Positions 6,472 through 58,698 of a stretch of 64,000 nt of DNA are shown piece after piece. Under the pieces are notes generated by a model that was given only the letters and a program-made list of their open reading frames with translations, did not search any database and was not told the origin of the DNA. The stretch is taken from NCBI GenBank assembly GCA_027692465.1, contig JAQEYU010000003.1, forward strand, positions 1-64,000, given 5' to 3'. This DNA is from Enterococcaceae bacterium OF42-14pH9A. Lineage in GTDB: Bacteria > Bacillota > Bacilli > Lactobacillales > Enterococcaceae. The translations under genes were made by a program, and so were the position numbers. Every line of letters begins with the position of its first letter. Positions within the stretch are counted from its first letter, which is position 1.

Positions 6472-6513
6472 AAAATAACACAAACGACATAATGTCTGTC
6501 ACTTACTTAAATG

Positions 6514-6542
6514 AGTATACCTGTCTTGCATGGGAATTTCAA
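6514..6542 (-). promoter_or_regulatory. Sigma-A promoter of tRNA-Leu
   Basis: On the minus strand a TTGAAA -35 box (6537-6542) and a TATACT -10 box (6514-6519) are separated by 17 bp, about 45 bp upstream of the tRNA. Confidence 0.8.
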
Positions 6543-6679
6543 CACTTTTTTTGAATTTTTCAGAAATAAATTTGCTTGTCGCAGGAGAGTGCTTACCACA
6601 ATATTTGATCAATTTGTGAGCCAGGGGCAGGACAGGTGACTTTTAACGAGCTGCCCAAGGATTGATTTTGCGAAAGCCC

Positions 6680-6708
6680 TTGCAATCTAGTAGTTTGAGT
6701 TGTATGAT
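6680..6708 (+). promoter_or_regulatory. Sigma-A promoter of the uxaC operon
   Basis: A TTGCAA -35 box (6680-6685) and TATGAT -10 box (6703-6708) are separated by 17 bp. Transcription should start near 6715, about 30 bases before uxaC. Confidence 0.8.
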
Positions 6709-6722
6709 ACTAATATATTAGT
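6709..6722. promoter_or_regulatory. Putative operator of the uxaC operon
   Basis: The perfect 14-bp palindrome ACTAATATATTAGT directly abuts the -10 box and covers the expected start site. This is a typical repressor position. The regulator is not identified here; GntR- or LacI-type repressors control hexuronate genes in other Firmicutes (known of the pathway). Confidence 0.55.
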
Positions 6723-6747
6723 TTAGAGAAAGAGCAGAGGTGTCCTG

Positions 6748-36821: not shown

Positions 36822-36961
36822 CAGTAGCAACGTGACGGCGAGCATTCGACCGTCATGATTTTGGTGACAGGAAACACGGCAAAGTGATAAGCAAAATATC
36901 GGTATGGGTAGGAAGTGCCTGAAAATCCGACCCAGAGGAACTAATGATTGGAGAGAAATCT

Positions 36962-37801
36962 ATGAGCGGACCGCAGCAATGGCCGAAATGTGATCCCAAA
37001 ATTAAGCAGTATATTCAAGGATTTTCCGAATTGCTGCAACGAGAACTAGGACCGGAATTGGTGGGGATCTATCTGCACGGCTCACTTTCTATGGGCAGTT
37101 TTTATGCTCCTAACAGTGATTTAGACTTGATAGGGGTAGTAAAGGCGCCTTTGATAGCACAAAATGCGGACCGGTTGCTGTTAAAAATTGCTGAGCTTTC
37201 GATTGGACGCCCTTTTGCAGGGGATATCGAGTTCAGCTTGATTACAGCCGATACAGCACAAAATCCGCAGGGATCGATCACTTATGAGCTCCATTACAGT
37301 GATTTTTGGCGGGAAGCGATCCTTTCAGGTAGGGTACACTACCAAAAGGAGCAGTATGATAATGATTTGTTTTCTCACCTGACCTACGTCGTTCAGCGGG
37401 GGATTTGTCTGTATGGGGACCCGATTTCAACAGTGTTTTCGCCGGTATCACATGCCTTGTTTATGGACTCCGTCTTTGCCGATCTGGCTGATATTTTAGA
37501 AGAGAATCAACTGTTCCAAAAACCGATCTACGGTCTGCTGAATATCTGTCGCTGTCTACAGCTTATGACTGTTCCTGCAGAAAAAAACGTCTACAGTAAA
37601 GACGAAGGAGCTGCCTGGGGACTTGCCCATCTACCTGTTTATTTTCATCCGCTGATCAGAGCCGCATTGGAGCGCTACCATGGAGAAACCGTGATCGATA
37701 ACGTATCAAATAGTTGCTTTTCAAACGCTTATGGTGGTGAGTTGCAAGCTATTCGAGACTATACCCGAGCGGCTTTGTCGGCAGAAAATCAGCGAATCTA
37801 A
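36962..37801 (+). CDS. Aminoglycoside adenylyltransferase-like nucleotidyltransferase
   Basis: A 279-residue protein with an N-terminal polymerase-beta-type nucleotidyltransferase domain (GIYLHGSLSMG at about 35-45, then the metal-binding pair D53-L-D55) and a C-terminal DUF4111-like helical domain, as in ANT(3'')/ANT(9) enzymes that adenylylate streptomycin or spectinomycin. The fold is clear, but resistance activity is not. ATG at 36962 behind GGAGAG is preferred; ATG at 36944 behind GAGG is a real alternative (285 residues). It is not within a recognisable transposon, so it looks like a chromosomal homologue. Confidence 0.8.
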   Translation: MSGPQQWPKCDPKIKQYIQGFSELLQRELGPELVGIYLHGSLSMGSFYAPNSDLDLIGVVKAPLIAQNADRLLLKIAELSIGRPFAGDIEFSLITADTAQNPQGSITYELHYSDFWREAILSGRVHYQKEQYDNDLFSHLTYVVQRGICLYGDPISTVFSPVSHALFMDSVFADLADILEENQLFQKPIYGLLNICRCLQLMTVPAEKNVYSKDEGAAWGLAHLPVYFHPLIRAALERYHGETVIDNVSNSCFSNAYGGELQAIRDYTRAALSAENQRI

Positions 37802-38392: not shown

Positions 38393-38701
38393 GCTGCTCA
38401 CCTCGTTAAGTAAAATTCCAGCGATGGATGTTGTGGTTTTCTTCACCACAATCTGTGTCATGAATACTTGCCAATGTATCACGTAAGTTGTATTTTACCT
38501 ATGATTTCGGGGGGAAAGTCCGAACAAAATTGAATACACCGGAGTTTTCATACAGATTATTGCGTGCCATCTGACTAGTAAGTAATGACATTTCTACCAA
38601 GACACCAGATTCAGCTTACCTGATAATCTGAATAGAGCACAGGTATGCATATTATTATACCTTATTTGCTCTGCAAAATCGGAATAGATACTGACACAAC
38701 T

Positions 38702-38717
38702 TGGCACATAAATTGCT
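38702..38717 (+). promoter_or_regulatory. Sigma-54 promoter (-24/-12) of the GH36 gene
   Basis: TGGCAC-ATAAA-TTGCT matches the sigma-54 consensus TGGCAC-N5-TTGCW exactly. The start site should lie near 38728, 34 bases before the coding region. An inverted repeat AGGTAT-N10-ATACCT (about 38641-38662) upstream is a candidate activator site. A degenerate dispersed-repeat end (ACACCGGAGTTTTCATACAG) lies near 38535. Confidence 0.85.
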
Positions 38718-38761
38718 TACTGATGAATGAGAAATTGAATGAGAAGTAGAGGTGCTTTTTT

Positions 38762-40843
38762 ATGGAATTGATCGCAACAGTTACTTTTGGTGACATGATA
38801 GCGAATTATTATACTTGTGACGGAAATCTAGAGTGGGTTTTGGTCCCGGCTAAAATGTCAGAAAAAATTCAACTTATGGAACGTCTGAAGAAGGACTCTC
38901 TGATTCAAGCGAAATTGGTTGGAGATGACTACCCTAAAGGATTTTCTACCGGACATACGATGCGTAATTCTAAAACTACAAAGATGTTGAATTTCATTGA
39001 ACAGCAAGTGACAGAGGATAAAGATGGTTTAAAGGTTGATTCAATTATGGAGGACTATCGGGGAAATCAATTTATACATCACGTTCAGTGGAATCACGAA
39101 TATCCGGTTTTGAAAACATGGACGACTTTCAGGAATCAAACCGCCCAAACCCAAAAGCTGGAGTTATTGTCGAGTTTCTCATTGAGCTGTCTCAGCCCTT
39201 TTTCTGGAGGAAACGAGCCTGGGACGTTAGAGTTGGTGAGGTATCGCAGCAAGTGGAGTTCTGAGGGGCGACGTTTGGTGCAGCCGATTGAGGATTTGCA
39301 GTTAGAGCCTTCTTGGAAACCTTCCGGCGTTGGACTAGAAAAATTTGGGCAAATTGGCTCAATGCCGGTTCGAGGCTATTTCCCTTATGCAGCAGTAACA
39401 GATAAGGAGCGACAAGTATCTTGGGCAGTTCGTCTGGCAATCCCGGGTTCCTGGCAAATGGAAGCATATCGATTAGACGAAGATCTGTGTTTATCGGGTG
39501 GACTGGCAGATCGTGACTATGGAGACTGGCTGAAAGAAATAGAACCAGGTGAAAGCTTTGACACACCGCCAGCCTATTTAACCGTCGCCATAGGTCAGGA
39601 ATCAGAGGCATCTCAACGTTTGACAAGTATTCAAAGAGATACGCTCAAACTGGATCATGCATCAGAAGTTGAGTTGGCAGTTCAATTTAATGAGTTTTGT
39701 ACAACGTGGGGAAAGCCGACGGAGCATTCTGTAACAGAGACTCTGAATGCATTGAAGGGTAAAGGAATCAAATACTACGTGATTGATGCCGGGTGGTATG
39801 CTGATCCAAAATTTGGATGGGAACGCAGCCATGGAGACTGGATTTTGAATGAAGAGCAGTTTCCTAATGGCTTGGAACCGGTCTTGGATAAAATTCGTGA
39901 TGCTGGGATGATTCCCGGGATCTGGTTTGAAATTGAAACGGTAGGACGTGACTCAAAGGCAAGTCATCTGTCGGAACACTTATTGAAACGAGATGGTATT
40001 CCGATGACCTGCGGCGATCGTCGTTTTTGGGATATGCGTGATCCCTGGGTTCAGGATTACCTCTTCAACAGAATCATCAGCTTCTTAAAAGAATACAACT
40101 TTGGCTATTTAAAAATTGACTATAATGAGAATTTTGGTCGAGGGTTTGATGATTCTCAACTGTCAATGGGTGAGGCTGGACGTCAGACTCTAGAAGCATC
40201 TCAATCTTTCATCAGGAGAATCAAGGATGAACTACCTGATCTCGTGATTGAAAACTGTTCCTCTGGTGGGCATCGGTTGGAGCCTTCTATGATGGCATTA
40301 ACAGATCTATCCAGTTTTTCTGATGCGCATGAGGCGGAATGTATCCCGATTATTGCAGCTAACCTGCACCATCACCTCCTGCCTCAGCAAAGTCTGATTT
40401 GGGCCGTATTGCGAAAAAAAGATACGTTGAAGCGCTTATACTATTCGATGTCTGCAACATTTCTGGGCAGAATCTGTCTATCCGGAGATGTTCAGCTTTT
40501 GGATAAGGAGCAATGGCAGGTAGTTTCAGATGCGTTGTCCTATTACGAAGAGGTCAGGGATTTGCTGACAAAGGGGTTAACAGAAATCATTGGGAAACCA
40601 CAGCAGACATATCGAGAATTGACCGGATATCAGGTTGTTCTGAGAAAAGGGGCTAAAAAGACTCTTGCCGTAATTCATCAATTTGATACCAAGGAAATTC
40701 TTTTGCCAAAAAGAATTGGTGAAATTCAAAAATCTTACGGCATAGTGAATCAAGGGATTGTATTAAATGAGAATGAAGACAATTACATGATAAGTTTTCC
40801 GGAGCAGATGATGGGTTGCAGTATATTGTTTAATAGACATTGA
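38762..40843 (+). CDS. Alpha-galactosidase, GH36
   Basis: A 693-residue GH36 enzyme that removes alpha-linked galactose. An N-terminal beta-supersandwich is followed by a (beta/alpha)8 barrel with nucleophile D453 in YLKIDYNEN and acid/base candidate D521 in FSDAHE, and a C-terminal beta domain. No signal peptide is seen, so it acts on imported sugars. AGAGGTG lies before ATG at 38762. It is transcribed from a sigma-54 promoter, directly upstream of the activator gene. It is distinct from the second GH36 at 50981 and belongs to a different branch, judging by the catalytic motifs. Confidence 0.93.
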   Translation: MELIATVTFGDMIANYYTCDGNLEWVLVPAKMSEKIQLMERLKKDSLIQAKLVGDDYPKGFSTGHTMRNSKTTKMLNFIEQQVTEDKDGLKVDSIMEDYRGNQFIHHVQWNHEYPVLKTWTTFRNQTAQTQKLELLSSFSLSCLSPFSGGNEPGTLELVRYRSKWSSEGRRLVQPIEDLQLEPSWKPSGVGLEKFGQIGSMPVRGYFPYAAVTDKERQVSWAVRLAIPGSWQMEAYRLDEDLCLSGGLADRDYGDWLKEIEPGESFDTPPAYLTVAIGQESEASQRLTSIQRDTLKLDHASEVELAVQFNEFCTTWGKPTEHSVTETLNALKGKGIKYYVIDAGWYADPKFGWERSHGDWILNEEQFPNGLEPVLDKIRDAGMIPGIWFEIETVGRDSKASHLSEHLLKRDGIPMTCGDRRFWDMRDPWVQDYLFNRIISFLKEYNFGYLKIDYNENFGRGFDDSQLSMGEAGRQTLEASQSFIRRIKDELPDLVIENCSSGGHRLEPSMMALTDLSSFSDAHEAECIPIIAANLHHHLLPQQSLIWAVLRKKDTLKRLYYSMSATFLGRICLSGDVQLLDKEQWQVVSDALSYYEEVRDLLTKGLTEIIGKPQQTYRELTGYQVVLRKGAKKTLAVIHQFDTKEILLPKRIGEIQKSYGIVNQGIVLNENEDNYMISFPEQMMGCSILFNRH

Positions 40844-40876
40844 TATGTAAGCTGGTACTTAAACTTGAGTTGATTG

Positions 40877-41013
40877 TCTAGTGCAGCGTCTGCTTGATAA
40901 TGCTGACCCAGTTCGTAAAGGAGCCCACGCTCTGGATATTGGCAATAGATCGTATTTTATGGTCTATGACAACTTTTTCAAAAATTTGAAATGTCAGCGC
41001 GACACTACACTAG
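40877..41013. repeat. Possible small element with imperfect inverted ends
   Basis: CTAGTGCAGCGTC at 40877 and, on the other strand, CTAGTGTAGTGTC at 41013 form 13-bp ends with two mismatches around 137 bp. It lies in the 395-bp gap between the GH36 gene and the activator and is unrelated to the main dispersed repeat. It may be a decayed mobile element. No clear terminator after the GH36 gene is visible. Confidence 0.35.
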
Positions 41014-41172
41014 TACCTGATTTTACATTTGGTTTGTTATATTTCGGAATAACAATAATAGCGATCGGCTACAATTGAAAAACGGAAAAATGCCATTATT
41101 CCTAAGCGTTCTCTTTTAATAAGACTAGGAATTTTCAAATTTTCTTTATACCTTCGACAGAATAGGAAAAAC

Positions 41173-41200
41173 TTGTATGTGTCGATAACCTATGTATAAT
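41173..41200 (+). promoter_or_regulatory. Sigma-A promoter of the sigma-54 activator gene
   Basis: TTGTAT (41173-41178) and a perfect TATAAT (41195-41200, preceded by TG) are separated by 16 bp, about 40 bp before the start codon. Confidence 0.7.
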
Positions 41201-41238
41201 AATAGAAAACGACGTGTCAAGAAGTGAGGGGGAAAAGA

Positions 41239-43986
41239 ATGTCAAAACAAGAAATACTGAAGTTTTTGAGGGATGCGACTGATGAACTTTCAGAAATTAA
41301 TGGAAGTGAACAATTAACGACTGAGGGAATCTGTGAATCGGCGGGAATTCAACGTAACACCGCCAGCCAGTATCTGAACGAATTTGTAAAAAATCGCATA
41401 GCGTTTAAGGTCAAAACCCGGCCGGCTTTGTTTTTTCACCGAGAGACATTTGAAAGTAAATTTTTCACCGTAACTCAAGACGTATATGAAAGTCTCGATC
41501 AGCTGAGAAACGGCAAAGTCGGAATGTCATTCGCAGACAGCAGGGTGTTCGACTCAATAATTGGTGTTCGATCCAGTCTGCGGATGGCTATCGACCAAAT
41601 TAAAGCTGCGGTAATGTACCCAGGGATTGGGCTACCGATGATGTTTCATGGTGAGACTGGAGTAGGTAAAAGTCTGTTAGCTAAAAAAGCTTATGAATAT
41701 TGCGTGGAGCAGGAATTAGTCGAAGAAAAGGCTGCTTTTTTAGAGTTGAATTGTGCCCAGTATTACCACAACCCTGAACTTTTAAGCAGTATTTTATTCG
41801 GTTATAAAAAAGGAGCATTCACCGGTGCTGTTGAAGACCAAATAGGGATGCTGGAGGCAGCAGATGGTGGTGTGCTGTTTTTGGATGAATGTCATCGCTT
41901 ATCTTCGGAAAGTCAGGAGAAGCTCTTTACTTTTATGGACAGTGGAACGTTTTCCAGAATCGGTGAAAATAACCGTAAACGAAAGGCAAAGGTCCGTCTG
42001 ATTTTTGCAACTACTGAAAATCTGCAAACAAGTTTTTTACGAACTTTTACCCGTCGTGTGCCGGTGACAATCAATATTCCTTCCCTTTCAGAAAGAACTT
42101 CCCAAGAGTTGTTGGAGTATCTTTACACTTTTTTGATTCGGGAAAGCTGCCAGTTCCATAAAGAAATCGTTATTACGCCCTGGATTATTAATCGTATGAT
42201 GTCGCTGACATATCGCGACAATGTGGGAGAATTGAAGAATATGATTAAGATAATCTGTGCCAACGCGTATAGTAAACAAGCCCATAAGCCGATAGTGGTT
42301 ATCAATTCAGAAGCTCTGGAAAACAGTTTACTGTCGAAATTTTTATCCCTCAAAGAAATTGATAATACAGAAAATCGAGACGTGATCATTACACCGGAGA
42401 GTCGTATTGAGGATTTCATGAAGACAGAAAACGAAGAGACGGCTATGATGCGAGGAATCTTCAAAGTCTTTCAACAAGTACTGATCCAGTTTCAGGAAAA
42501 AAAAGTGAGTGTCGATTATGTGATTCTGCAGTTGTCCCGGGAGGCCAGCACCGTCGTGGAGATGCTGGTCTATGATACCCCGAGTGAAGAAAATACATTG
42601 AAACTCCTTCAAGGAACAATCAAAGAGCTGGTCAACTTTTTAGAAACCAATTTCTTTGTAAACATAAGTGGAAATTCCATTATTGCACTGACCAGCTACC
42701 TCTATAAAAGGTCGTCATTTGTCGCCGATCTTCCTGAACTTGATCCCAAAACGTTAGCGATGATCCGTGATTTCATATCAATCAATCTGCTGACAGAGCA
42801 AAAGATTCTTAACGCACTTCTGGAATTGGTAGAATCAAAACTCGATGTTGTATTAACAGATTCCGAAAAGATCCTCTTGGCCTTTTATTTGAAAGGTCTG
42901 GACCTCCAGGTGAAAAAGCCGCTCATTCGTGGAGTGATCTTAGCCCATGGATTTTCCACTGCCAGCTCGATCGCTGACGTGGTGAACCGCTTTATGGAAG
43001 AACACTTGTACGACGCTTTTGATATGCCATTCAACGTTGAATTGGATAAAGTTCAAGACTATATGCAGCATTACCTCAAAACCAATGACTGCAGTAAAGG
43101 TTTAGTAATTTTAGCCGACATGGGTTCATTGATGGTTTTAACAGAAACGTTAGAAGATCACTTAACTGGGCCAATGTTGATGTTAAATAATGTAACTACA
43201 CAACAGGCTCTTTTTGCTGCTGAGATGATCAAGAAGAATACAGACTTGGAAGTAATTGGCGATAAAATCACAGAAAATTTGCATACAGACTATAAAGTGA
43301 TCTATCCCCAACTTACGAAGCCGCCACTGATTATTACAGTTTGTCATACTGGATTAGGTGCTGCACAGCAATTAAAGGATTTTTTAAGCAGCAGTATTCC
43401 ATCTGACCTGGGATATCATGTAGAAGCTGTTGACTACCACTATTTGAAAAAATACGGGAAAGACAACTCTCTTTTTAAGCAATACGATGTGCAGGGGATT
43501 ATTGGTACAGCAGATCCTGGACTTGAAGAGGTCAGTTTTGTTTCTCTTGAAGACCTTATTTCCGGACAGGGGTTGGAAAACATTGACCGTATTTTCTATG
43601 GAATCGAGGATGCCAAGATGCGTAAAAACATCAACGACAATCTTGTGCGTAATCTGTCTATTGAGAGACTGTTATCAGCAATCACAATTTTGGATGTTCA
43701 GCGAGTCATCTCTTACATCGATGAGGCCCTTGCGGAGATCGAACGTCGGTTGAAAGTCAATCTTTTTAATAGTAAAAAAGCTATTCTCTATGTGCATATT
43801 GCCAGTCTTGTGGAAAGATCGATTCGAAATCACGAGATATCGGAATACTTAGGTGAAGAGGATGCTAGTCGAAGTGAAGCTTTGAAGATTATCCAAGAGG
43901 CAATGGAAGATCTGGAAAATGCATATAGCATCAAGATTAGTGAATATGAATTAAACTATCTGTACGATATTATTTTTGATGCTTGA
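41239..43986 (+). CDS. LevR/ManR-type sigma-54-dependent PTS activator
   Basis: A 915-residue activator. It has an HTH (about 20-60), a sigma-54 AAA+ domain (about 105-340) with Walker A GETGVGKS 138-145, GAFTGA 192-197 and Walker B VLFLDE 212-217, then PRD1 (about 470-560), an EIIA-Man-like domain (about 563-690, H570), an EIIB-Gat-like domain (about 696-790, C702) and PRD2 (about 815-915, H853). PRD1 shows YLYKRS preceded by Thr where a His is expected. Family members are switched by PTS phosphorylation and open sigma-54 promoters of mannose-type PTS operons; three such promoters flank this gene. GTG at 41224 is rejected because it overlaps the GAGGGGG site used by ATG 41239. Confidence 0.95.
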   Translation: MSKQEILKFLRDATDELSEINGSEQLTTEGICESAGIQRNTASQYLNEFVKNRIAFKVKTRPALFFHRETFESKFFTVTQDVYESLDQLRNGKVGMSFADSRVFDSIIGVRSSLRMAIDQIKAAVMYPGIGLPMMFHGETGVGKSLLAKKAYEYCVEQELVEEKAAFLELNCAQYYHNPELLSSILFGYKKGAFTGAVEDQIGMLEAADGGVLFLDECHRLSSESQEKLFTFMDSGTFSRIGENNRKRKAKVRLIFATTENLQTSFLRTFTRRVPVTINIPSLSERTSQELLEYLYTFLIRESCQFHKEIVITPWIINRMMSLTYRDNVGELKNMIKIICANAYSKQAHKPIVVINSEALENSLLSKFLSLKEIDNTENRDVIITPESRIEDFMKTENEETAMMRGIFKVFQQVLIQFQEKKVSVDYVILQLSREASTVVEMLVYDTPSEENTLKLLQGTIKELVNFLETNFFVNISGNSIIALTSYLYKRSSFVADLPELDPKTLAMIRDFISINLLTEQKILNALLELVESKLDVVLTDSEKILLAFYLKGLDLQVKKPLIRGVILAHGFSTASSIADVVNRFMEEHLYDAFDMPFNVELDKVQDYMQHYLKTNDCSKGLVILADMGSLMVLTETLEDHLTGPMLMLNNVTTQQALFAAEMIKKNTDLEVIGDKITENLHTDYKVIYPQLTKPPLIITVCHTGLGAAQQLKDFLSSSIPSDLGYHVEAVDYHYLKKYGKDNSLFKQYDVQGIIGTADPGLEEVSFVSLEDLISGQGLENIDRIFYGIEDAKMRKNINDNLVRNLSIERLLSAITILDVQRVISYIDEALAEIERRLKVNLFNSKKAILYVHIASLVERSIRNHEISEYLGEEDASRSEALKIIQEAMEDLENAYSIKISEYELNYLYDIIFDA

Positions 43987-43994
43987 TAAGGAAG

Positions 43995-44020
43995 GAGACT
44001 CTCTGATGGGTCTCTTTTTT
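43995..44020 (+). terminator. Terminator after the activator gene
   Basis: A short stem GAGAC/GTCTC around a 10-nt loop is followed by six T residues, eight bases after the stop codon. Confidence 0.6.
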
Positions 44021-44051
44021 ATATCTTCTGAAAAGATCTTTGCATATTAGG

Positions 44052-44206
44052 GGGTGCTTGAAAACGCCGGGGAATCCAGATTTTTACAGACCTGTCGAAA
44101 TCAAGAAGTAAAGCGCAACTTATGTGGTACAAAGCTGTGCATTTATGACGCAGATTGCGGTGAAAAGGCCCCAAATACCTGCCATTGGAGTTTTCAGACT
44201 TAGCTC
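44052..44206 (+). repeat. Dispersed intergenic repeat, full-length copy (about 155 bp)
   Basis: It starts GTGCTTGAAAACGCCGGGG and ends TTGGAGTTTTCAGACTTAG, with the core AAGTAAAGCGCAACTTATGTGG, AAAGCTGTGCATTTATG and GCAGATTGCGGTGAAAA in between (each part shared with the copy at 60973). The core can fold as GCGCAAC..GCTGTGC. It fills the gap after the activator gene. Downstream of it, AGAGGT-CAGA-ACCTCT (44260-44275) is a perfect 6-4-6 palindrome that may be an activator site. Confidence 0.8.
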
Positions 44207-44320
44207 AGGCTCATTGTAAACGTGAAATCACTGTACTTCTACTCTGATTCGCCAAGCAAAGAGGTCAGAACCTCTGTTTAGAATGTTGTTAAGCAAACCT
44301 AGGCACTTCCAGACACAATC

Positions 44321-44336
44321 TGGCATGAAAATTGCT
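44321..44336 (+). promoter_or_regulatory. Sigma-54 promoter (-24/-12) of the HAD phosphatase gene
   Basis: TGGCAT-GAAAA-TTGCT differs from the sigma-54 consensus TGGCAC-N5-TTGCW at one position. The start site should be near 44347, just before the AGGAGG site of the next gene. Confidence 0.75.
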
Positions 44337-44360
44337 CCTATCTAGATAGGAGGTGCAGAT

Positions 44361-45179
44361 ATGAAATTGATTGCAATCGATTTAGATGGAACATTGTTGG
44401 ACACAAATCATCAGTTATCAGACAAAAATAAAGCAGCAGTACGTAGAGCGCATGATGCTGGTATCATAATTGTAATAGCGACCGGACGTTCCTTGTTCTC
44501 TGTAAAAGAAATTTTTGCTGATCTGGCAATCGATGGTTACATGATCGCATTGAATGGCAGTTTCATTGCCAAAATAGACAAAAGGCAACAGGTGACAAAA
44601 CTTTTTAGGGAAAGGGTCGACAGAAAGAAACTAATTCAGGCTTTTGAAATCGCCATGGAGCATCAGATTACCTTTATTGCGACCAATGAGTTGGGTAGTG
44701 ACCGGGTATTGATAGAGGATGGAAACGAACTTGTTCAAGAATTTCTGGTAAATCGTCCGGATTTGAGAAATCGTCAGATCAATGAAATGGCAAGCTTGCT
44801 TTCAGAGAGGTTCAATGAGTATCTGAAAGCAGCCTTTACAAATAAAGATCGCGAAAGACTGATAGAACTACGAAGCAATCTACAGGAAAAGGGAATCGAC
44901 ACAATTTTTTCTGATACGTATTACATCGAGTTTCTTCCTTACGGTGTAAACAAAGGGACAGCACTGGGACGCTTATGTGAGTATATACAATTGCCACTTT
45001 CGGAGACAGCCGCATTTGGTGATCAGGAGAATGATATTGAAATGCTGCAGATGAGCGGAGTCGGGCTCGCTATGGGCAATGCTCAACCTAATGTTAAGGC
45101 TGCTGCAGACAGGATTACCATGGATAACGATCATAACGGTGTAGCTGACGGAATTTTGAATTTTTTATTGAAAGAATAG
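44361..45179 (+). CDS. Cof-type HAD-IIB sugar phosphatase
   Basis: A 272-residue HAD hydrolase. Motif I is DLDGTLLD (nucleophile D8), motif II ATGRS, motif III Lys in the FLPYGVNKGTAL stretch, and motif IV GDQENDIEML, with a C2B cap between. Family members dephosphorylate sugar phosphates. Because the gene has its own sigma-54 promoter and immediately precedes the PTS operon, it probably acts on a phosphorylated sugar that the PTS brings in (inference). A strong AGGAGG site precedes ATG at 44361. Confidence 0.92.
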   Translation: MKLIAIDLDGTLLDTNHQLSDKNKAAVRRAHDAGIIIVIATGRSLFSVKEIFADLAIDGYMIALNGSFIAKIDKRQQVTKLFRERVDRKKLIQAFEIAMEHQITFIATNELGSDRVLIEDGNELVQEFLVNRPDLRNRQINEMASLLSERFNEYLKAAFTNKDRERLIELRSNLQEKGIDTIFSDTYYIEFLPYGVNKGTALGRLCEYIQLPLSETAAFGDQENDIEMLQMSGVGLAMGNAQPNVKAAADRITMDNDHNGVADGILNFLLKE

Positions 45180-45192
45180 TTCGACAGATTTT

Positions 45193-45208
45193 TGGCACAG
45201 AAATTGCT
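45193..45208 (+). promoter_or_regulatory. Sigma-54 promoter (-24/-12) of the PTS operon
   Basis: TGGCAC-AGAAA-TTGCT is an exact sigma-54 match. It sits 13 bases after the phosphatase stop codon and about 40 bases before the EIIB start. Confidence 0.85.
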
Positions 45209-45245
45209 TTTAAAGAAATGCAAATAAATAAAGGAGGAATCTTCA

Positions 45246-45737
45246 ATGATTTCAATGATTCGTATCGATGACCGCCTGGTACACGGGCAGGTAGCTGTAA
45301 AATGGTCAAAACAACTGAATGTTAGCCGTATTGTAGTAGTGAGTGATGTGATTGCCCAAAATGAAATTCAGACCAGCGCCTTGAAAATGGCTGCCCCCGC
45401 AGGAGTAAAGGTTGCTGTACTAACAATCGCCAAGGCTATCGGGATTCTAAATGATCCTCGTTCAAAAGACTTGCGTATTCTGGTAGTGACAAATGATCCA
45501 AAAGTAGTTGCAGAATTACTGCCACAACTGGAAGAAAAAAATCTATTTCTGAATATGGCCAACTATGGCCGAATCGGTGGTGCCTTGTCTGATAAGGAAA
45601 AAATCACCGAAACTGTTTATTTATCTCCGGAAGACAAACAAGTCGTTCAATCGATTTTCGACATGGGGTATGATTTTAAATACCAGCCTCTGCCGGATGA
45701 TACACCACAGTCTTTAAAACAACTGGTAGGAGGTTGA
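45246..45737 (+). CDS. PTS mannose-family EIIB component
   Basis: A 163-residue cytoplasmic EIIB. The phosphorylated histidine is H13 in the signature IDDRLVHGQV. It passes phosphate from EIIA to the incoming sugar. GGAGG lies nine bases before ATG at 45246. It is the first gene of a sigma-54-driven operon IIB-IIC-IID-IIA-DUF2264-GH88. Sequence alone does not give the sugar, but the downstream enzymes point to an unsaturated-uronyl disaccharide, as in the hyaluronan PTS operons of streptococci. Confidence 0.95.
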   Translation: MISMIRIDDRLVHGQVAVKWSKQLNVSRIVVVSDVIAQNEIQTSALKMAAPAGVKVAVLTIAKAIGILNDPRSKDLRILVVTNDPKVVAELLPQLEEKNLFLNMANYGRIGGALSDKEKITETVYLSPEDKQVVQSIFDMGYDFKYQPLPDDTPQSLKQLVGG

Positions 45738-45742
45738 TGTAA

Positions 45743-46597
45743 ATGATAGTCGAAGCTTTAATTGTTGGGTTCGTTGTAGCCCTGGCTAAATTTTTGGACT
45801 GGTGGGGATCGACACAATTGGCCCGACCAATCTTTATTGTCGCATTACTCGGAATTATGTTGGGACATCCGACAGAAGGAATCATTCTTGGTGCACAATT
45901 GGAACTGATCTTTTTGGGTAATGTTTCGCTGGGTGGCGTCATGCCTTCTGATATTACGTTAGGGTCAATCTTTGGTGCAGCGTTCGCAATGATCGTCGGG
46001 TCTGATTTGAATGTTGCGATAGCTTTGGCAGTTCCAATCTCTATGTTGGGAACACTGTTGTACTCAGTAATGAAGATGGTTATCACTTCAATGGTCCCTC
46101 GATTCGAAAAGCACATCAAAGATCAAGACTATAAAGCCTTCAACCGATTGTGGCACATGCAGTTCTGGGGCTTTGAATTGGCATATTTCCTGTTGGGCTT
46201 TATCGTAATTTTGGCAGGTGCAGAAGCGGTCAAGGCTTTCGTTGAATGGCTGCCTGCTTGGGTGCAAAGTTCCATGACCGTAGCTTCAACGATGCTTCCA
46301 GCAATTGGCTTGGCGCTGTTGTTGAAAATGTTGTGGCAAAAATCTTTGGCACCTTATTACTTTCTCGGCTTCGCTCTCGGGGCCTTCTTCTTCTACCAAA
46401 AGGCGGTAGAAGTCAAAGATGGTGTGGTCACAACACAACCTTCCAGTATCCTGAGTCTGGTACAAATCGCTTTTATTGGTTTTATCGTAGCGGCGTTAGT
46501 TGTTATGGCTGAACTCAAGAGCAATAAACAAGCTCCGTCACAAAACGCAGCTGCTGTCGGCGGAGATGACGATGAGGAGGACTTTTTCAATGACTAA
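45743..46597 (+). CDS. PTS mannose-family EIIC component
   Basis: A 284-residue membrane protein with several hydrophobic segments and the family motif GAQLELIFLGNVSLGGVMPSD. Together with EIID it forms the sugar channel. The C-terminal tail is acidic (GGDDDEEDFFND). GGAGG lies 11 bases before ATG at 45743, six bases after EIIB. The coding end overlaps the EIID start by 8 bp. Confidence 0.95.
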   Translation: MIVEALIVGFVVALAKFLDWWGSTQLARPIFIVALLGIMLGHPTEGIILGAQLELIFLGNVSLGGVMPSDITLGSIFGAAFAMIVGSDLNVAIALAVPISMLGTLLYSVMKMVITSMVPRFEKHIKDQDYKAFNRLWHMQFWGFELAYFLLGFIVILAGAEAVKAFVEWLPAWVQSSMTVASTMLPAIGLALLLKMLWQKSLAPYYFLGFALGAFFFYQKAVEVKDGVVTTQPSSILSLVQIAFIGFIVAALVVMAELKSNKQAPSQNAAAVGGDDDEEDFFND

Positions 46598-47432
46598 AAA
46601 TGCAATGTTTAAGTTGGACAAGACAGAGCGGAAAACAATTTCAAAAATGTTTTGGCGCAACCAGTTTTTAATGTTTTGTACCAGCTATACGAAACAACAA
46701 GGGATTACTTTCGGATGGTTGATGGCACCATTTTTGCAGCGAATCTATGGCAAGGATACACCGGAGTTTTACGATGCGATGCAACGACATCTGGATTTCT
46801 TTAACACCGCTCCGGCAATGAATGGGTTCATCTCTGCTTTAAGTTTATCTATGGAAGAAGAAAATAAGCAGATGGTAGATGAAGGCAAATTTTTTGATCC
46901 AACTTCGATTTCTGCTTTGAAGACTTCTTTGATGGGACCTTTAGCCGGAATTGGGGATGCGATTTACTTGTCAGTTTTGCGGGTTATTGCAACTGGGGTG
47001 GCTTTGGGCTTGAGTGAAAAAGGCAGCTATTTGGGACCGATTTTGTTCCTGCTGATTGTCAACGTGCCAAATATGCTGATCCGGTGGTATACAACTGTGG
47101 TTGGATATAAAGCTGGTGGACAATTCATTTCTGATGCATTAAAGTCGGGAACTTTCCAAGCCATTACAAAGGGAGCAGCAGTTCTTGGTTTGATCATGAC
47201 AGGTGCTATGACCGCACAGTTTGTTACTTTTAAGACCAGCTTTACCGCTCAGCTTTCAGGTACGACCTTTAATTTGCAAAGTGTCTTTGATTCAATTCTT
47301 CCGGGACTGTTACCGCTGGGGATTACAATGATCTGCTTTGCTTATTTGCGAAAACACAACAAGCCGGTCACTGCATTGGTAGTGATGTTTATCGCTGCTG
47401 TGGTGCTGACTGTTTTAGGCATCGCCGGTTGA
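46590..47432 (+). CDS. PTS mannose-family EIID component
   Basis: A 280-residue EIID with the family features QGITFGWLMAPFL, the SLMGPLAGIGDA segment and a hydrophobic C-terminus. ATG at 46590 is chosen because GAGGAGG (46574-46580) lies just upstream inside the EIIC gene; the open frame further upstream has no site. The 8-bp overlap with EIIC suggests translational coupling. Confidence 0.95.
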   Translation: MTKNAMFKLDKTERKTISKMFWRNQFLMFCTSYTKQQGITFGWLMAPFLQRIYGKDTPEFYDAMQRHLDFFNTAPAMNGFISALSLSMEEENKQMVDEGKFFDPTSISALKTSLMGPLAGIGDAIYLSVLRVIATGVALGLSEKGSYLGPILFLLIVNVPNMLIRWYTTVVGYKAGGQFISDALKSGTFQAITKGAAVLGLIMTGAMTAQFVTFKTSFTAQLSGTTFNLQSVFDSILPGLLPLGITMICFAYLRKHNKPVTALVVMFIAAVVLTVLGIAG

Positions 47433-47437
47433 TAGAT

Positions 47438-47463
47438 GGCTGTCCAGGACTTTCCTGGCAGCC
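47438..47463 (+). other. Hairpin between the EIID and EIIA genes
   Basis: GGCTGTCCAGG and CCTGGCAGCC pair with one bulge around a 5-nt loop. No T run follows, so this is more likely a processing or stabilising hairpin than a terminator. It lies six bases after the EIID stop codon in the only sizeable gap (122 bp) of the operon. Confidence 0.6.
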
Positions 47464-47554
47464 AATACATATTTGTTCTGTTGACTGAGAAGTTTTTCAT
47501 TAACATTGGGCTTTCTACGGTCAGTGGAAGTATGGAATTTTTGAAAGAGGGAAA

Positions 47555-47968
47555 ATGATGAAAAAAAAATATTTTTTGATCTCACATAATGAATACGCCT
47601 TGGGTCTAAAAAAAGCGCTGGAAATGATTGTCGGCGAACAAGCAAATTTGACTGCTTATGGTTTAATGCCTGGCGGACATCCAGATGACATCGCCAATGA
47701 AATTGAAAAGCAAATTGACGATGAAACGCAGGTTGTGATTCTTGGCGATATCGCCGGGGGAAGCGTATGTAATTCATGTTTGCCTTTGACTACAAAACCA
47801 AATGTGGTTCTGGTGACAGGTACAAATCTTCCGTTGGCAATGGAAATTGTAGTAGCTCAGATCAGTGACAAACAGGCAATTGATACGATTATAGCGGCTT
47901 GCCGTGAAGGTATGAGAACATTGACTTTAGAACTTACTAATGAGGATGGTGGGGATGATTTCTTCTAA
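47555..47968 (+). CDS. PTS mannose-family EIIA component
   Basis: A 137-residue cytoplasmic EIIA; the phosphorylated histidine is H11 in FLISHNEYALGLKKALEM. It takes phosphate from HPr. Two ATG codons in a row (47555 and 47558) are possible. The AGAGGG site is better spaced for the second, so the protein may be one residue shorter. It overlaps the DUF2264 gene by 14 bp. Confidence 0.93.
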   Translation: MMKKKYFLISHNEYALGLKKALEMIVGEQANLTAYGLMPGGHPDDIANEIEKQIDDETQVVILGDIAGGSVCNSCLPLTTKPNVVLVTGTNLPLAMEIVVAQISDKQAIDTIIAACREGMRTLTLELTNEDGGDDFF

Positions 47969-49763
47969 TAGAAAAAATCTTACTACTCGTGAAGACTTGA
48001 GCATTTGGCTGGATGAAATGCTGCCCAAAGATTTCAGTTACTTGGAGCAGTCCGGGGCAGGCTATTTGAAGGAAATCCGTTGCTTTGAATCCGTGATGCG
48101 CCCAATGTGGGGGCTGTTTCCGAAATATGCCGGCAGAGATGATTTTAACGGCTTCGCACAAGAGCCGATTTTTCAGGACTTTCAAGAACTGGTGAAAGCG
48201 AAGCACTTGCCGCATTTTTCGACTGAAAATCGACAAATTGCTGTTGAAGTTGGTGTGCTGGGATATGTGATTGGGACATTCGGAGAGAAATTTTTGGGAC
48301 TTTTTTCACCAGAGGAACAGGATTATCTCCTGCAATGGTTAAGCGGCATTAATACGATTGACTTTCCTCCGGGAAACTGGTATTTCTTCCTGATATTGGT
48401 CAATACGGCTCTGAAAAAGTCAGGAGCAGAGTATTCCGAGATTCGATTACAGGCAGCTTTAGACGGCATTGAGAGTTTTTACCTTGGGGAGGGATGGTAT
48501 TCAGACGGAGACAATCAGCAGCGGGACTACTATGTTTCCTTTGCCTTTCATTTTTACGGTCTATTGTACTGCCGTTTCGGAGATTCTGATATTGCTGAGC
48601 GATTTCAAGGACGCGCCTTGCGTTTTGCAGAGGATTTTAAGTATTGGTTTGACAATTCAGGCCGGTCATTGCCATTTGGACGAAGCATGACCTATCGTTT
48701 TGCTCATGTGTCTTTCTGGGCAGCATTGGTAGTGACTGGAGTTTATCGAAAAGCCACCTGCTCATTAGGTGAGATCAAGCAAATGCTGTTAGATAATTTA
48801 CGATTTTGGCAGAAGCAGCCGATTACTCTGCCTGGCGAAAATAATCTTTCTATCGGCTACGGGTATAATAATCTGATTATGTCGGAGGATTACAATGCTC
48901 CGGCTTCACCAATGTGGGCGTTTAAAAGCTTTATTATTTTGGAATTACCGGATGAGGATATCTTTTGGCAGGTACCAGAACAATCACCGGTCAAAACATC
49001 TTTAATCAGTCAGCCTCATGCTGGATTTATTCTTCAGACTAATCAGGACCAAACAATTGCGTTGAGTTGTTCGCAATATGCCATTAGTCCGGGTCTCTAT
49101 CATGGACGGGAAAAATATAGCAAATTTGCTTATTCTACTTATTTCGGTTTCAATATCGTCCGGGATAATCAAGGTTTGGAGCAGTTTGCAATTGATTCGA
49201 CACTGGCTTTCAGCCTGCCTAATACAAACCAATTTCAAGCGCGAGGGCCGATTATCAGTGGAAAGACTTATGACAGATACTCTGTCAGTCAGTGGCAGGT
49301 TTATGACAGAATCCAAGTGACGACTTATTTGCTTCCTGTAGACAGTTGCGGGCACATCCGGATCCATGAAGTCTTTACTCCCATTTCGGTAGTATGTGTG
49401 GAAGGTGGTTTTCCATTGCTGGATTGGAATCAAAAGTATCATCAACCGGAATTGACAGAACGCAGTTGTATTCTGCAAAATAATTCCGGCTATTCACAGA
49501 TTACCGACTTACTAACGAACAGAAAACCACGGGTCACACAGCAAGGACCCAATAGCAATATCTACTCTCCTGAGAAAAATGCTGTGCCTACATTGTTTGA
49601 CAAGCTTTCAGCCGGAAGAAACGTGTTGGCATCATATGTGGTCGCAAACCCCCAAAAAACGGTGAAGCCATCGTCGGAAGTAAAAATTATTATTAATGAG
49701 AAAACGGATTATTTCTGTGTTATCACTGATAAAATCATGGAAATCAAAAAGGAGCGATTTTGA
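47955..49763 (+). CDS. DUF2264 family protein, probable glycan-active enzyme
   Basis: A 602-residue protein of the DUF2264 family (PF10022). The conserved stretches VMRPMWGLFP, GNWYFFLILVNTAL, GEGWYSDGDNQQRDYY and SFAFHFYGLLYC are present, in an (alpha/alpha)-barrel-like N-terminal half followed by a beta-rich C-terminal half. Relatives occur in plant- and host-glycan operons and are thought to act on uronic-acid-containing glycans; the reaction here is not established. No signal peptide is seen. ATG at 47955 is taken because GAGG lies nine bases upstream. It is coupled to EIIA before it and to GH88 after it. Confidence 0.88.
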   Translation: MISSNRKNLTTREDLSIWLDEMLPKDFSYLEQSGAGYLKEIRCFESVMRPMWGLFPKYAGRDDFNGFAQEPIFQDFQELVKAKHLPHFSTENRQIAVEVGVLGYVIGTFGEKFLGLFSPEEQDYLLQWLSGINTIDFPPGNWYFFLILVNTALKKSGAEYSEIRLQAALDGIESFYLGEGWYSDGDNQQRDYYVSFAFHFYGLLYCRFGDSDIAERFQGRALRFAEDFKYWFDNSGRSLPFGRSMTYRFAHVSFWAALVVTGVYRKATCSLGEIKQMLLDNLRFWQKQPITLPGENNLSIGYGYNNLIMSEDYNAPASPMWAFKSFIILELPDEDIFWQVPEQSPVKTSLISQPHAGFILQTNQDQTIALSCSQYAISPGLYHGREKYSKFAYSTYFGFNIVRDNQGLEQFAIDSTLAFSLPNTNQFQARGPIISGKTYDRYSVSQWQVYDRIQVTTYLLPVDSCGHIRIHEVFTPISVVCVEGGFPLLDWNQKYHQPELTERSCILQNNSGYSQITDLLTNRKPRVTQQGPNSNIYSPEKNAVPTLFDKLSAGRNVLASYVVANPQKTVKPSSEVKIIINEKTDYFCVITDKIMEIKKERF

Positions 49764-50896
49764 TGTTTACAGAGGAAACAAAACAATGGGCGCGAGAAGT
49801 TTTAGAAAAAATGGACCATAAGCTTTCAGAATCAGCTGAGCGTTTGGGTAATAAGGTACCTTATATTCCTGATGAGGAGACCGGCAAGTATGAAGTAGAC
49901 ATGGTAGCAAAAGAAGCTGTCTGGTGGACCAATGGCTTTTGGGCAGGGATAATGTGGCAAATGTATCATGCCACAGAAAAAGAACTGTACAAGAAAACCG
50001 CAGAGGCCAATGAAGAACGTATGGATGCAGCTTTTGATATCTATACAGGCTTACATCATGATGTTGGTTTTATGTGGCTGCATCTCTCTGTCGCCAACTA
50101 TCGACTGACCGGAAACGAACGTTCAAAAGCCCGCGGGCTACATGCTGCTCATTTGCTGGCAGGACGTTATAATCCACGTGGCAAGTTCATCCGTTCTTGG
50201 AATCGAGACCGTTCCGGTTGGGTGATCATTGATTCTATGCTGAACATCCCCTTGTTGTACTGGGCACGCGACACCATCGAAGATCCTCGTTTCGGTTATG
50301 TGGCAGAGGACCATGCTGATAAAGTGATGAAAGATATTGTGCGGCCGGATGGTTCAGTCAATCATATCGGCGTGTTTGATCCGACCAATGGTGATCTTTT
50401 AGAGACACCGGCGGGACAAGGATACGCTTCTGGCTCTTCTTGGTCCCGAGGACAGTCATGGGCATTGTATGGTTTTGCCCTGAGCTATCTGCATACTGGT
50501 AAAAAAGAGTATCTCGATACCGCAAAAAAAGTTGCACATTACTTTATTTCGGAGGTTTCCAAAACCGGTTGGATTCCGTTGGTGGATTTCCGTGCGCCTA
50601 AAGAACCGGTGATGTGGGATACATCTGCGGGTATGTGTGCAGCTTGCGGACTATTGGAAATTGCTAAACATGTGGATGAATATGAACGAGACTTGTACGT
50701 GGAAGCTGCAGTCAACATCTTGAGAGCGACTGAAGAAAAGTACGCAATCTACGAGACGGAAAGAGACGGTCTGATCGATATGCAGACTGCGGATTACCAT
50801 TCCGAGCATTGGACCCATATGCCCATCATTTATGGGGACTACTATTTTGTGGAGGCTATTTTACGTTTGTTGGATAAAGATTTTCTAATTTGGTGA
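49763..50896 (+). CDS. Unsaturated glucuronyl hydrolase, GH88
   Basis: A 377-residue GH88 enzyme that hydrates and opens the 4,5-unsaturated uronic acid at the non-reducing end of lyase-derived oligosaccharides. The two catalytic aspartates are seen as D100 in LHHDVGFMW and D157 in IIDSMLNIPLLYWA (D88 and D149 in the Bacillus enzyme). No signal peptide. ATG at 49763 overlaps the DUF2264 stop (TGATG) and has GGAG eight bases upstream. Its place behind a mannose-type PTS resembles streptococcal hyaluronan operons, but no polysaccharide lyase gene is in this window. Confidence 0.94.
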   Translation: MFTEETKQWAREVLEKMDHKLSESAERLGNKVPYIPDEETGKYEVDMVAKEAVWWTNGFWAGIMWQMYHATEKELYKKTAEANEERMDAAFDIYTGLHHDVGFMWLHLSVANYRLTGNERSKARGLHAAHLLAGRYNPRGKFIRSWNRDRSGWVIIDSMLNIPLLYWARDTIEDPRFGYVAEDHADKVMKDIVRPDGSVNHIGVFDPTNGDLLETPAGQGYASGSSWSRGQSWALYGFALSYLHTGKKEYLDTAKKVAHYFISEVSKTGWIPLVDFRAPKEPVMWDTSAGMCAACGLLEIAKHVDEYERDLYVEAAVNILRATEEKYAIYETERDGLIDMQTADYHSEHWTHMPIIYGDYYFVEAILRLLDKDFLIW

Positions 50897-57006: not shown

Positions 57007-58698
57007 ATGAAAAGCATTTGGAAAAAGTTTGGCATGGGAATGATAGCAACGGCTCTATTGTTCTCGGCAACTGCTTGTGGTGGTAAAAATGATACAGCTA
57101 GTGGCAATAAGCGTAGCAATGAACTGACGGTCTATACTCAAGCGGCGACCTATGAAGGAACGGTCAACGGGTATGTCGGTAAACATTTTAAGGACAAACT
57201 GGGAGTAGAGCTGAAGGTTGTGCCGAATTCAGTCGGCGGTACCAGCCGGTTTGAAACACGTCTGACTACCGGGAATTTAGGGGATATAGTAATTTTCACC
57301 AGCGAGGATGACTTTGAGAAAGCTGTTAAAGCCGGTGTTATCAAAGATCTTTCCGGTGATTTGGATAAAATGCCCAATGTCGCCCGCTTTACCGATGCAA
57401 TTGACAAAATGAAGAAGAAAAATGAGGATAAAGTGTACGGAATCCCTTGTGAAGTGGCACTTGACAAAGAGGTGACTCCGAATGATCCGGTACAGGTTCC
57501 ATCGTTGCGCTATGATTACTACACGGAGCTGGGGTCACCAGAGATCAAAGACTATTGGGATTATGCGACGGTAATTGAACAGATGGTAGAAAAACATCCA
57601 ACTACTGAATCCGGAGACAAGTTTTACGGGTTATCCATGTTCTCTGAATGGGATGGTAAAAATGTCAATCAAATCCGCAGTATCGCTCGTGCGTTGGGCT
57701 ATAATACGTTAACTGATTTCTTGAATGTCAGTGCGACCGATGAAACGATGGAAGATATTTTGGCGGAAGATTCTACGTATATGCAAGGATTGAAATGGGC
57801 CAATGCTTTTAATCAAAAGGGTCTGTTAGATCCCGATTCAGCTTCGCAAACCTGGGAAGATTTTTTGAAAAAAGCTGAGAAAGGTCAGTCGGCAATGTGG
57901 ATTTTCGGTTATATGGGTGACTTGAACTTCAATCCGGTCAATAAAGAATTGACTGCAGAAGGAAAAGGGTACAAGCGGATTCCAAACAACAGCATGCAAG
58001 CAGTTGATCAGATGACCTCAACGTATGGAAATAATTGGTATTATGCGATTTCTTCCAAAGCAGAGAACCAGGAAAAAGCGATGTCTTTCATTGATTATAT
58101 GTATTCTGATGAGGGAGCCTTCACCTTTGAAAACGGCCCTCAAGGTGTTCTTTGGGATTTGGATGAGAATCAGAAACCTTATCTGACAGAAGTCGCTCAG
58201 GGCAGTTGGGAAGCCAAAGTACCTGAAGATCAGGGCGGCGGTGTCGTCTCCGATACCTATAAGAAGTTGGTGAACGGCCCAACAATGGCAAGCGGAGCAA
58301 CAAATCCTCAATATAATTCACCTTCCACTTATAACACCTGGGAATCCTATTTAAAAGATAATGCTTCTACTTTAGACAAGGCTTGGACAGAGGACTTCGA
58401 TGGTGCTTTGAATATTAAAGAGTACCTGGTTAAGAACGATATGATCGCCTCTTATCCTGCAGTGGATTTGGCACCGATGAAATATTCCGATGAACAGCAG
58501 GTTGTAGCCAATCAAGTGGGGGATACGATTAAAGAAATGTCTTGGCAAATGATTTATGCCAAAGATGATGCCACTTTTGAAAATTTGAAAGCTGACTTGA
58601 TCAAAAAAGCGAACAGTCTCGGGTATGCTGCCTGTGTCAAAGCTGAAAAAGAATATGCTCAGGAATACTTTGCAGCTCGTAAGGCAGCAGCAGAATAG
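57007..58698 (+). CDS. Extracellular solute-binding lipoprotein, family 1 (LplA/YtcQ-like)
   Basis: A 563-residue sugar-binding lipoprotein. The signal is GMIATALLFSATACGG with lipidated Cys at about 23, and the mature part is a large two-lobed family-1 binding protein. Length and motifs suggest the LplA/YtcQ type used by rhamnogalacturonan and complex-glycan importers with YesMN control. No permease or ATPase gene is next to it: upstream is a terminator, downstream a 572-bp gap. The permeases may lie beyond 64 kb. AGAAGGGGG precedes ATG at 57007. Confidence 0.92.
   Translation: MKSIWKKFGMGMIATALLFSATACGGKNDTASGNKRSNELTVYTQAATYEGTVNGYVGKHFKDKLGVELKVVPNSVGGTSRFETRLTTGNLGDIVIFTSEDDFEKAVKAGVIKDLSGDLDKMPNVARFTDAIDKMKKKNEDKVYGIPCEVALDKEVTPNDPVQVPSLRYDYYTELGSPEIKDYWDYATVIEQMVEKHPTTESGDKFYGLSMFSEWDGKNVNQIRSIARALGYNTLTDFLNVSATDETMEDILAEDSTYMQGLKWANAFNQKGLLDPDSASQTWEDFLKKAEKGQSAMWIFGYMGDLNFNPVNKELTAEGKGYKRIPNNSMQAVDQMTSTYGNNWYYAISSKAENQEKAMSFIDYMYSDEGAFTFENGPQGVLWDLDENQKPYLTEVAQGSWEAKVPEDQGGGVVSDTYKKLVNGPTMASGATNPQYNSPSTYNTWESYLKDNASTLDKAWTEDFDGALNIKEYLVKNDMIASYPAVDLAPMKYSDEQQVVANQVGDTIKEMSWQMIYAKDDATFENLKADLIKKANSLGYAACVKAEKEYAQEYFAARKAAAE

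What the first reader, a model, noticed from the sequence alone, without database searches (positions are those of the whole stretch)
38702..50896. A sigma-54 regulon built around a LevR-type activator, with three -24/-12 promoters
Two promoters (38702 and 45193) match TGGCAC-N5-TTGCW exactly and a third (44321) differs at one base. Each lies just before a gene: GH36, HAD phosphatase, and the PTS operon. Between them is an activator with GAFTGA, EIIA, EIIB and PRD domains. That family is known to control mannose-type PTS operons from sigma-54 promoters. Here the regulon also takes in a glycosidase and a phosphatase with separate promoters, which is not the usual single-operon arrangement.
Basis: partly seen in the sequence, partly recalled or inferred. 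Interest (0 to 1): 0.75.

Follow-up and report, generated by a model that had tools for sequence, protein, structure and literature searches.

The report
LevR-type sigma-54 regulon with promoter-adjacent tag
A sugar-uptake gene cluster appears to be switched on from several sigma-54 promoters by one sugar-sensing activator, and most of these promoters carry the same short extra DNA word right beside the promoter, which is probably where the activator itself docks.

Summary
The three -24/-12 sites are real: exact at 38702 and 45193, one mismatch at 44321. A third exact match, at 46723, lies inside the EIID gene. About 0.08 exact matches are expected per window. No genome is held for the window, but 7 of 7 relatives searched carry rpoN, one as a fragment. 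In orthologous loci EIIB has the promoter in 9 of 9, HAD in 5 of 7, EIIA in 7 of 9 but not in the window.

It matches at 5 of 7 positions or better in 26 of 28 promoters, against a mean of 0.7 at other offsets. It is nearly confined to this locus (14 of 19 sites versus 0 of 54 elsewhere in six genomes) and mostly tracks the activator across genomes. Inverted copies recur upstream of the activator gene, so it is probably the activator's half-site.

Best reading: a LevR-type activator drives a multi-promoter regulon for uronic-acid oligosaccharides and marks its promoters with a site abutting the -24 box. All inference from sequence; nothing was measured.

The parts
38702..38717 (+). -24/-12 promoter 1 (TGGCAC N5 TTGCT), before the GH36-like gene
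   Evidence: exact match; weaker 2-mismatch counterpart at L001 7661
38692..38698 (+). proximal element TGACACA, 10 bp upstream of TGG
38762..40843 (+). GH36-like glycosidase (Melibiase domain 106 bits; only NCBIfam match is beta-L-arabinopyranosidase, 156 bits against a cut-off of 1100)
41155..41184 (.). inverted pair CGACAGA...TGTGTCG (30 bp), candidate autoregulatory operator of the activator gene; TATAAT at 41195-41200
   Evidence: similar pairs read by eye in L001, L037, L038, L039, L040
41239..43986 (+). LevR-type sigma-54 activator, 915 aa: HTH, AAA+ with GAFTGA (192), EIIA-Man His570, EIIB-like Cys702, PRD His853
44311..44317 (+). proximal element AGACACA, 10 bp upstream of TGG
   Evidence: same word before HAD in L036 10146
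44321..44336 (+). -24/-12 promoter 2 (TGGCAT N5 TTGCT), before HAD; predicted leader about 14 nt
   Evidence: one mismatch; counterparts in L036, L038, L042, L110
44361..45179 (+). Cof-type HAD-IIB phosphatase
45182..45188 (+). proximal element CGACAGA, 11 bp upstream of TGG
45193..45208 (+). -24/-12 promoter 3 (TGGCAC N5 TTGCT), before EIIB
   Evidence: exact match; present before EIIB in 9 of 9 loci
45246..45737 (+). PTS EIIB (mannose/sorbose family)
45743..46597 (+). PTS EIIC
46590..47432 (+). PTS EIID; holds an exact TGGCACN5TTGCW at 46723 inside the gene, probably not a promoter
47555..47968 (+). PTS EIIA; no sigma-54 site before it, unlike 7 of the 9 loci with EIIA
47940..49763 (+). DUF2264 protein; PDB sequence matches are one chain named beta-galactosidase and two named glucuronate dehydratases
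49760..50896 (+). GH88 unsaturated glucuronyl hydrolase-like

Best explanation
A LevR-type, PTS-sensing sigma-54 activator controls a multi-promoter regulon for uptake and breakdown of a uronic-acid-bearing oligosaccharide. Its target promoters carry an activator half-site, CGACA(G/C)A, about one helical turn upstream of the -24 box (about -36 to -30), so the activator is anchored next to the waiting sigma-54 polymerase. The same word, as an inverted pair of about 30 bp at the activator's own sigma-70-like promoter, probably mediates autoregulation. Shown here: the sites, their conservation, their spacing, their near confinement to the locus, and the domain content. Inferred: sigma-54 dependence, activator binding to CGACA(G/C)A, phospho-control by HPr and EIIB at His570 and His853 by analogy with LevR, and the substrate.
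For: Sites exact and rare by chance. EIIB promoter in 9 of 9 loci with EIIB. rpoN in 7 of 7 relatives. Proximal element in 26 of 28 promoters at 5 of 7 or better, against a mean of 0.72 and a maximum of 3 at 266 other offset pairs; 1.0 to 2.0 bits at six of its seven positions against at most 0.34 in columns -20 to -3 before it. Under the strict form YGACA(G/C/A)A it is in 20 of 28. In six relatives 14 of 19 in-locus TTGGCAY sites carry YGACA, against 0 of 54 elsewhere (hand tally; Fisher p 3e-11). In loci of other LevR clades 0 of 35 sites carry it. Of 395 order genomes, 5 of 5 with a close activator orthologue have the composite site at least twice, against 9 of 390 others with one each. Inverted pair upstream of the activator gene in 6 of 9 loci. 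GH88 and two of the three PDB matches of DUF2264 are named for glucuronic acid chemistry.
Against: No binding or expression data. The word was chosen from the same promoters it is scored on, and the best of two offsets was taken. The element is not exclusive: DagR-like activators about 29% identical to the window's also have CGACAGAT next to the -24 box (L106, L107, L108), and one G397 promoter has it with no LevR match within 18 kb. 2 of 28 promoters lack it (L041 1739, L042 7045), and L042 copies are loose (3 of 7 pass the strict form). Window promoters 1 and 2 carry weak copies (PWM 6.0 and 7.2 against 15.1). L110 was reached through the composite pattern, so its EIIB and EIIA promoters are no independent test; only its HAD promoter (TGACACA) is. 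A strict pattern for the inverted pair found only the window and L038 (and its copy L034) among these loci plus one unrelated place, against 2 in reversed sequence; the other pairs were read by eye. Related loci are not independent samples. 3 of the 28 sites fall inside open frames of 150 aa or more.
Confidence: 0.68

Rival explanations
1. An ordinary LevR regulon: remote UAS sites do the activation, and the proximal CGACA copy is a governor-like or repressing site that limits activity at high activator concentration.
For: Paired CGACA sites 22 bp apart at -196/-174 (L001) and -193/-171 (L037), and single copies at -177 and -175 (L039, L040), upstream of the PTS promoter. The inverted pair at the activator promoter looks repressive. 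NtrC has low-affinity governor sites downstream of its enhancers at glnAp2 (PMC3870243, passages). CelR and LevR use UAS sites, LevR at -125 (PMC10864463, passages).
Against: 9 of 34 promoters show the strict word only at the proximal place within 300 bp on both strands; no convincing distal pair was found in the window.
Confidence: 0.35
2. The element is bound by another protein, not by the LevR-type activator.
For: A G397 promoter has the element beside a two-component and ABC cluster with no LevR match in 18 kb. An AraC-type gene lies in L001. Other regulators in the loci were not searched systematically.
Against: The composite site tracks the activator across 395 genomes and occurs again at a second, DagR-like, LevR-type locus.
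Confidence: 0.18
3. The element is part of sigma-54 recognition in these bacteria (an extended -24 box).
For: Narrow spacing of 10 or 11 bp.
Against: 0 of 54 other TTGGCAYN5TTGCW sites in the same genomes have it; inverted copies occur at the activator promoter without a -24/-12 box.
Confidence: 0.05
4. One or more of the window sites is not a working promoter (the HAD gene or the GH36-like gene is read from elsewhere).
For: Promoter 2 has a mismatch; in L001 and L037 HAD directly follows the activator gene with no own promoter. The GH36-like promoter has only a 2-mismatch counterpart in L001.
Against: HAD promoters with predicted leaders of 14 to 18 nt in L036, L038, L042 and L110; same AGACACAA word in L036.
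Confidence: 0.2

Closest known systems
LevR of Bacillus subtilis and the levanase PTS operon
   Same: HTH, sigma-54 AAA+, EIIA-Man, EIIB-like and PRD layout; mannose-family PTS target; equivalents of the phospho-accepting His residues
   Different: LevR binds a UAS at -125 of one operon (PMC10864463, passages); here several promoters, with a candidate site at about -36
Enterococcus faecalis MptR, LpoR and other LevR-like activators
   Same: same family; LpoR was suggested to regulate lpt, an operon it does not directly precede
   Different: the LpoR UAS at lpt was called as-yet-unidentified (PMC8262876, passages); other sigma-54-like sites in the relatives lack CGACA
DagR/DgaR-type activators of D-glucosaminate operons
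   Same: LevR type; three DagR-like loci also carry CGACAGAT abutting the -24 box (L106, L107, L108, found through the composite pattern)
   Different: about 29% identity; the window activator scores 478 bits against a 1400 cut-off for DagR, L106 scores 983; different operon content
NtrC governor sites at glnAp2
   Same: activator sites between the enhancers and the sigma-54 promoter
   Different: low-affinity extra sites below strong enhancers (PMC3870243, passages); here the proximal site is the most constant one

Membership tests
LevR-type sigma-54 activator | AAA+ sigma-54 interaction domain with GAFTGA | tested here: met
   PF00158 139 bits; GAFTGA at residue 192
LevR-type sigma-54 activator | EIIA-Man domain with phospho-His | tested here: met
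   PF03610 22.2 bits, cut-off 21.4; His570
LevR-type sigma-54 activator | EIIB-Gat-like domain | tested here: inconclusive
   no Pfam match at 1e-3; Cys702 motif only
LevR-type sigma-54 activator | two PRDs, the second with regulatory His | tested here: inconclusive
   one PRD found, residues 834-917 of the GTG frame, His853; PRD1 not detected
sigma-54 promoter | -24 GG and -12 GC with correct spacing | tested here: met
sigma-54 promoter | rpoN in the genome | tested here: inconclusive
   window genome not held; 7 of 7 relatives have it, G002 as a fragment
sigma-54 promoter | RpoN-dependent start about 12 bp after -12 | not testable with these tools
   needs RNA data
Enhancer-dependent activation from a remote UAS | conserved activator sites 80 to 250 bp upstream | tested here: inconclusive
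   pairs at -170 to -196 of the PTS promoter in L001 and L037, singles in L039 and L040; none convincing in the window

The most novel reading that the evidence does not exclude
Some LevR-type activators do not need a remote enhancer: they recognise a half-site fused to the -24 box at a fixed 10 or 11 bp, so the sigma-54 promoter itself encodes which activators may fire it. This lets one activator own several separate promoters, and gives the many LevR paralogues of one cell a way to stay apart.
Probability: 0.3. Interest if true: 0.75.

Novelty: new variant of a known kind. Interest (0 to 1): 0.55.

Why it matters
Sigma-54 activators are usually described as enhancer-binding proteins that act through loops from about 80 to 250 bp away (PMC8262876 and PMC6615313, passages). 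A conserved, nearly locus-specific activator word at -36 with narrow spacing would be a different promoter logic. It would also supply a searchable signature for LevR-type regulons in enterococci and their kin, where one UAS had been called as-yet-unidentified. In relatives it already picked out linked GH28 genes and an ABC transporter cluster as candidate members.

Tried and rejected
Sigma-70 -35 reading of CGACA: rejected, because by eye no -10 lies at a suitable distance, the C is kept, and inverted copies exist. Universal proximal element in the LevR family: rejected, because 0 of 35 sites in loci of other LevR clades carry it; of the 20 further loci, 12 showed no exact site near the activator. 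The 46723 site as a fourth promoter: rejected, because it is inside EIID and no relative shares it. A conserved distal UAS in the window: not found. CGACA copies in EIIC (+675 to +679) and in DUF2264 lie in coding sequence and were set aside. A similarity between CGACA(G/C)A and the CCACTA word of another clade is suggestive only. The related-loci scan of genome contigs gave one locus. Structure prediction and fold search were not used. Literature searches (listings, and passages of some papers) showed no report of this element or of a sigma-54 promoter inside a terminator hairpin; they cover open-licence PMC papers only, and supplementary files were not read.

Full report
OBSERVATION. Exact matches are rare by chance: mean 0.08 per simulated window, none of 300 simulations reached 2, and 3 were observed. 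The third exact match, 46723, is inside EIID and is not shared by the relatives compared, so one exact match here is probably accidental. The genes are a GH36-like enzyme, a LevR-type activator, a Cof-type HAD phosphatase, EIIB-EIIC-EIID-EIIA of the mannose family, a DUF2264 protein, a GH88 protein, and then a clear GH36, a protein with a sub-threshold F5/8 match and two GH43.

RELATIVES. One named locus was found, in Vagococcus allomyrinae (L001, 66% identity). One search scored only two candidates per genome. 7 of 7 of these genomes match the sigma-54 DNA-binding family: G002 by a contig-end fragment, G389 by three complete matches and one in a broken frame, one of the complete ones next to this locus. 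Promoters precede EIIB in 9 of 9 loci with EIIB (window, L001, L036, L037, L038, L039, L040, L042, L110); HAD in 5 of 7 (window, L036, L038, L042, L110; not L001, L037); EIIA in 7 of 9 (L001, L036, L037, L039, L042, L110, L077; not the window, L038). So a multi-promoter regulon is a lasting property of this locus, while the set of promoters shifts. Predicted HAD leaders are 14 to 16 nt in the window, L036, L038 and L110 and 18 nt in L042 (arithmetic).

THE PROXIMAL ELEMENT. Aligned on TGG, the promoters share TTCGACA(G/C)A starting 10 bp (17 of 28) or 11 bp (11 of 28, better of the two offsets) upstream. 26 of 28 match CGACAGA at 5 of 7 positions or better, 20 of 28 at 6 of 7; 266 other offset pairs give means of 0.72 and 0.12, maxima 3 and 2. 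Information content is 1.0 to 2.0 bits at six of its seven positions (0.59 at the G/C/A one), against at most 0.34 in columns -20 to -3 before it. The word was taken from these same promoters, so these figures lean its way. L041 1739 and L042 7045 lack it; L042 copies are generally loose. The strict form YGACA(G/C/A)A is in 20 of 28. L110, another piece of the G002 locus, has it in 3 of 3, but was reached through the CGACA composite pattern; only its HAD promoter (TGACACA) is an unselected case. 3 of 28 sites lie inside frames of 150 aa or more; two of these frames are upstream extensions of the HAD and EIIA frames, the third is 7025-7753 of L042. In the window, promoter 3 has the full word, and promoters 1 and 2 have TGACACA and AGACACA.

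SPECIFICITY. Six relatives hold 73 TTGGCAYN5TTGCW sites. By hand tally 19 lie in the activator locus, and 14 of these also match YGACA-N5/6-TGGCAY; 0 of the other 54 do (Fisher p 3e-11). Of 20 composite sites in the six genomes, 19 are linked to the locus, counting GH28 genes and a contig taken as part of the duplicated G375 locus, and one is inside an unrelated gene. Of 395 genomes of the order, 14 have the CGACA composite site: 5 of 5 with a close activator orthologue, with at least two each, and 9 of 390 others with one each. Of 105 genomes of the G307 family, in part the same genomes, 10 have it: 4 of 4 with the activator and 6 of 101 others. Of the exceptions together, three are DagR-like loci (G291, G148, G141; DgaE and DgaF enzymes in G291) with CGACAGAT at the same place; five sites (G334, G250, G216, G003, G006) lie inside frames of 150 aa or more and look accidental; G218 and G403 are unclear; G397 looks like a real promoter, before a sensor kinase and an ABC cluster related to the window's 57007 gene. 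The DagR-like and G397 cases weaken strict one-activator specificity, though the former fit a site read by several LevR-type proteins. In 45 loci of other LevR clades (L008 to L032, L111 to L130), 0 of 35 TGGCAYN5TTGCW sites carry YGACA at that place.

OTHER COPIES. Upstream of the activator gene, CGACA(G/C)A is followed by its inverse, spanning 30 to 32 bp, in 6 of 9 loci: window, L001, L037, L038, L039, L040 (read by eye; two of the six are copies within G375). A strict pattern over 824 kb of fetched sequence found only the window and L038 (with its copy L034) plus L048, and 2 hits in reversed sequence, so the argument rests on the shared position, not on rarity. In the window the pair overlaps a sigma-70-like promoter (TATAAT 41195-41200, weak -35), which suggests autoregulation. 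L036 has instead a sigma-54-like site with its own CGACACA (by eye). Paired copies 22 bp apart lie at -196/-174 and -193/-171 of the PTS promoter in L001 and L037. For 9 of 34 promoters the proximal copy is the only strict copy within 300 bp.

MECHANISM. Most likely the activator binds these half-sites through its N-terminal HTH (RNTASQYLN, residues 39-47) and contacts the closed complex. Whether the proximal site drives, tethers or restrains is open. Phospho-control by HPr and EIIB is taken from LevR and CelR (PMC10864463, passages) and rests here only on conserved His570, Cys702 and His853. The enzymes suggest a glucuronosyl oligosaccharide: GH88 resembles unsaturated glucuronyl hydrolase; DUF2264 matches one PDB chain named beta-galactosidase (best, 4e-14) and two named glucuronate dehydratases (5e-13, 4e-12). 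Dehydration of a uronic acid end followed by GH105 cleavage is known from ulvan, with a different enzyme predicted through PL37 (PMC8511951, passages). The substrate is inference.

PRINT RECORD. Papers were seen as search listings and matched passages only. LevR UAS at -125, CelR with three UAS, Clostridiales UAS mostly at 100 to 250 bp, and the enterococcal LpoR UAS as yet unidentified: none of the passages describes a site at about -36.

Noticed in passing
L008 to L032 (activators 34-38% identical to the window's), TGG about 25-27 bp after the activator stop codon where the frame is intact: The -24/-12 box is the 3' arm of a long hairpin followed by a T-rich run, i.e. a sigma-54 promoter inside a terminator-like structure. 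Even the free N5 spacer covaries: 86.7% of cells paired against 38-45% when slid, 10 of 19 pairs with changes on both sides, 46 double-change cells against 16.1 shuffled (22 of 25 sequences used). The loop keeps CT, and nearly always A. No report seen in listings.
   Followed up: partly
G389 (L042 about 6421-6891 and three other places): Three complete sigma-54 DNA-binding matches and one in a broken frame in one genome, one complete one beside the activator locus; a dedicated sigma-54 paralogue is possible.
   Followed up: no
window 44335-44352: Perfect 18 bp palindrome CTCCTATCTAGATAGGAG over the predicted start of the HAD transcript and its ribosome site; not seen in L036.
   Followed up: no
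window 46723: Exact TGGCACN5TTGCA inside EIID, not conserved.
   Followed up: yes
window 36944-37801: Protein with an AadA_C (aminoglycoside adenylyltransferase C-terminal) domain.
   Followed up: no
L109 8465 (G397): CGACAGATAA-TGGCAT promoter before a sensor kinase, permease-like genes and a solute-binding protein 55% identical to window 57007-58698, with no LevR match in the 18 kb fetched.
   Followed up: partly
L001 about 7977-7994 and L037 about 6022-6025: GH36-like genes appear frame-broken in these relatives.
   Followed up: no
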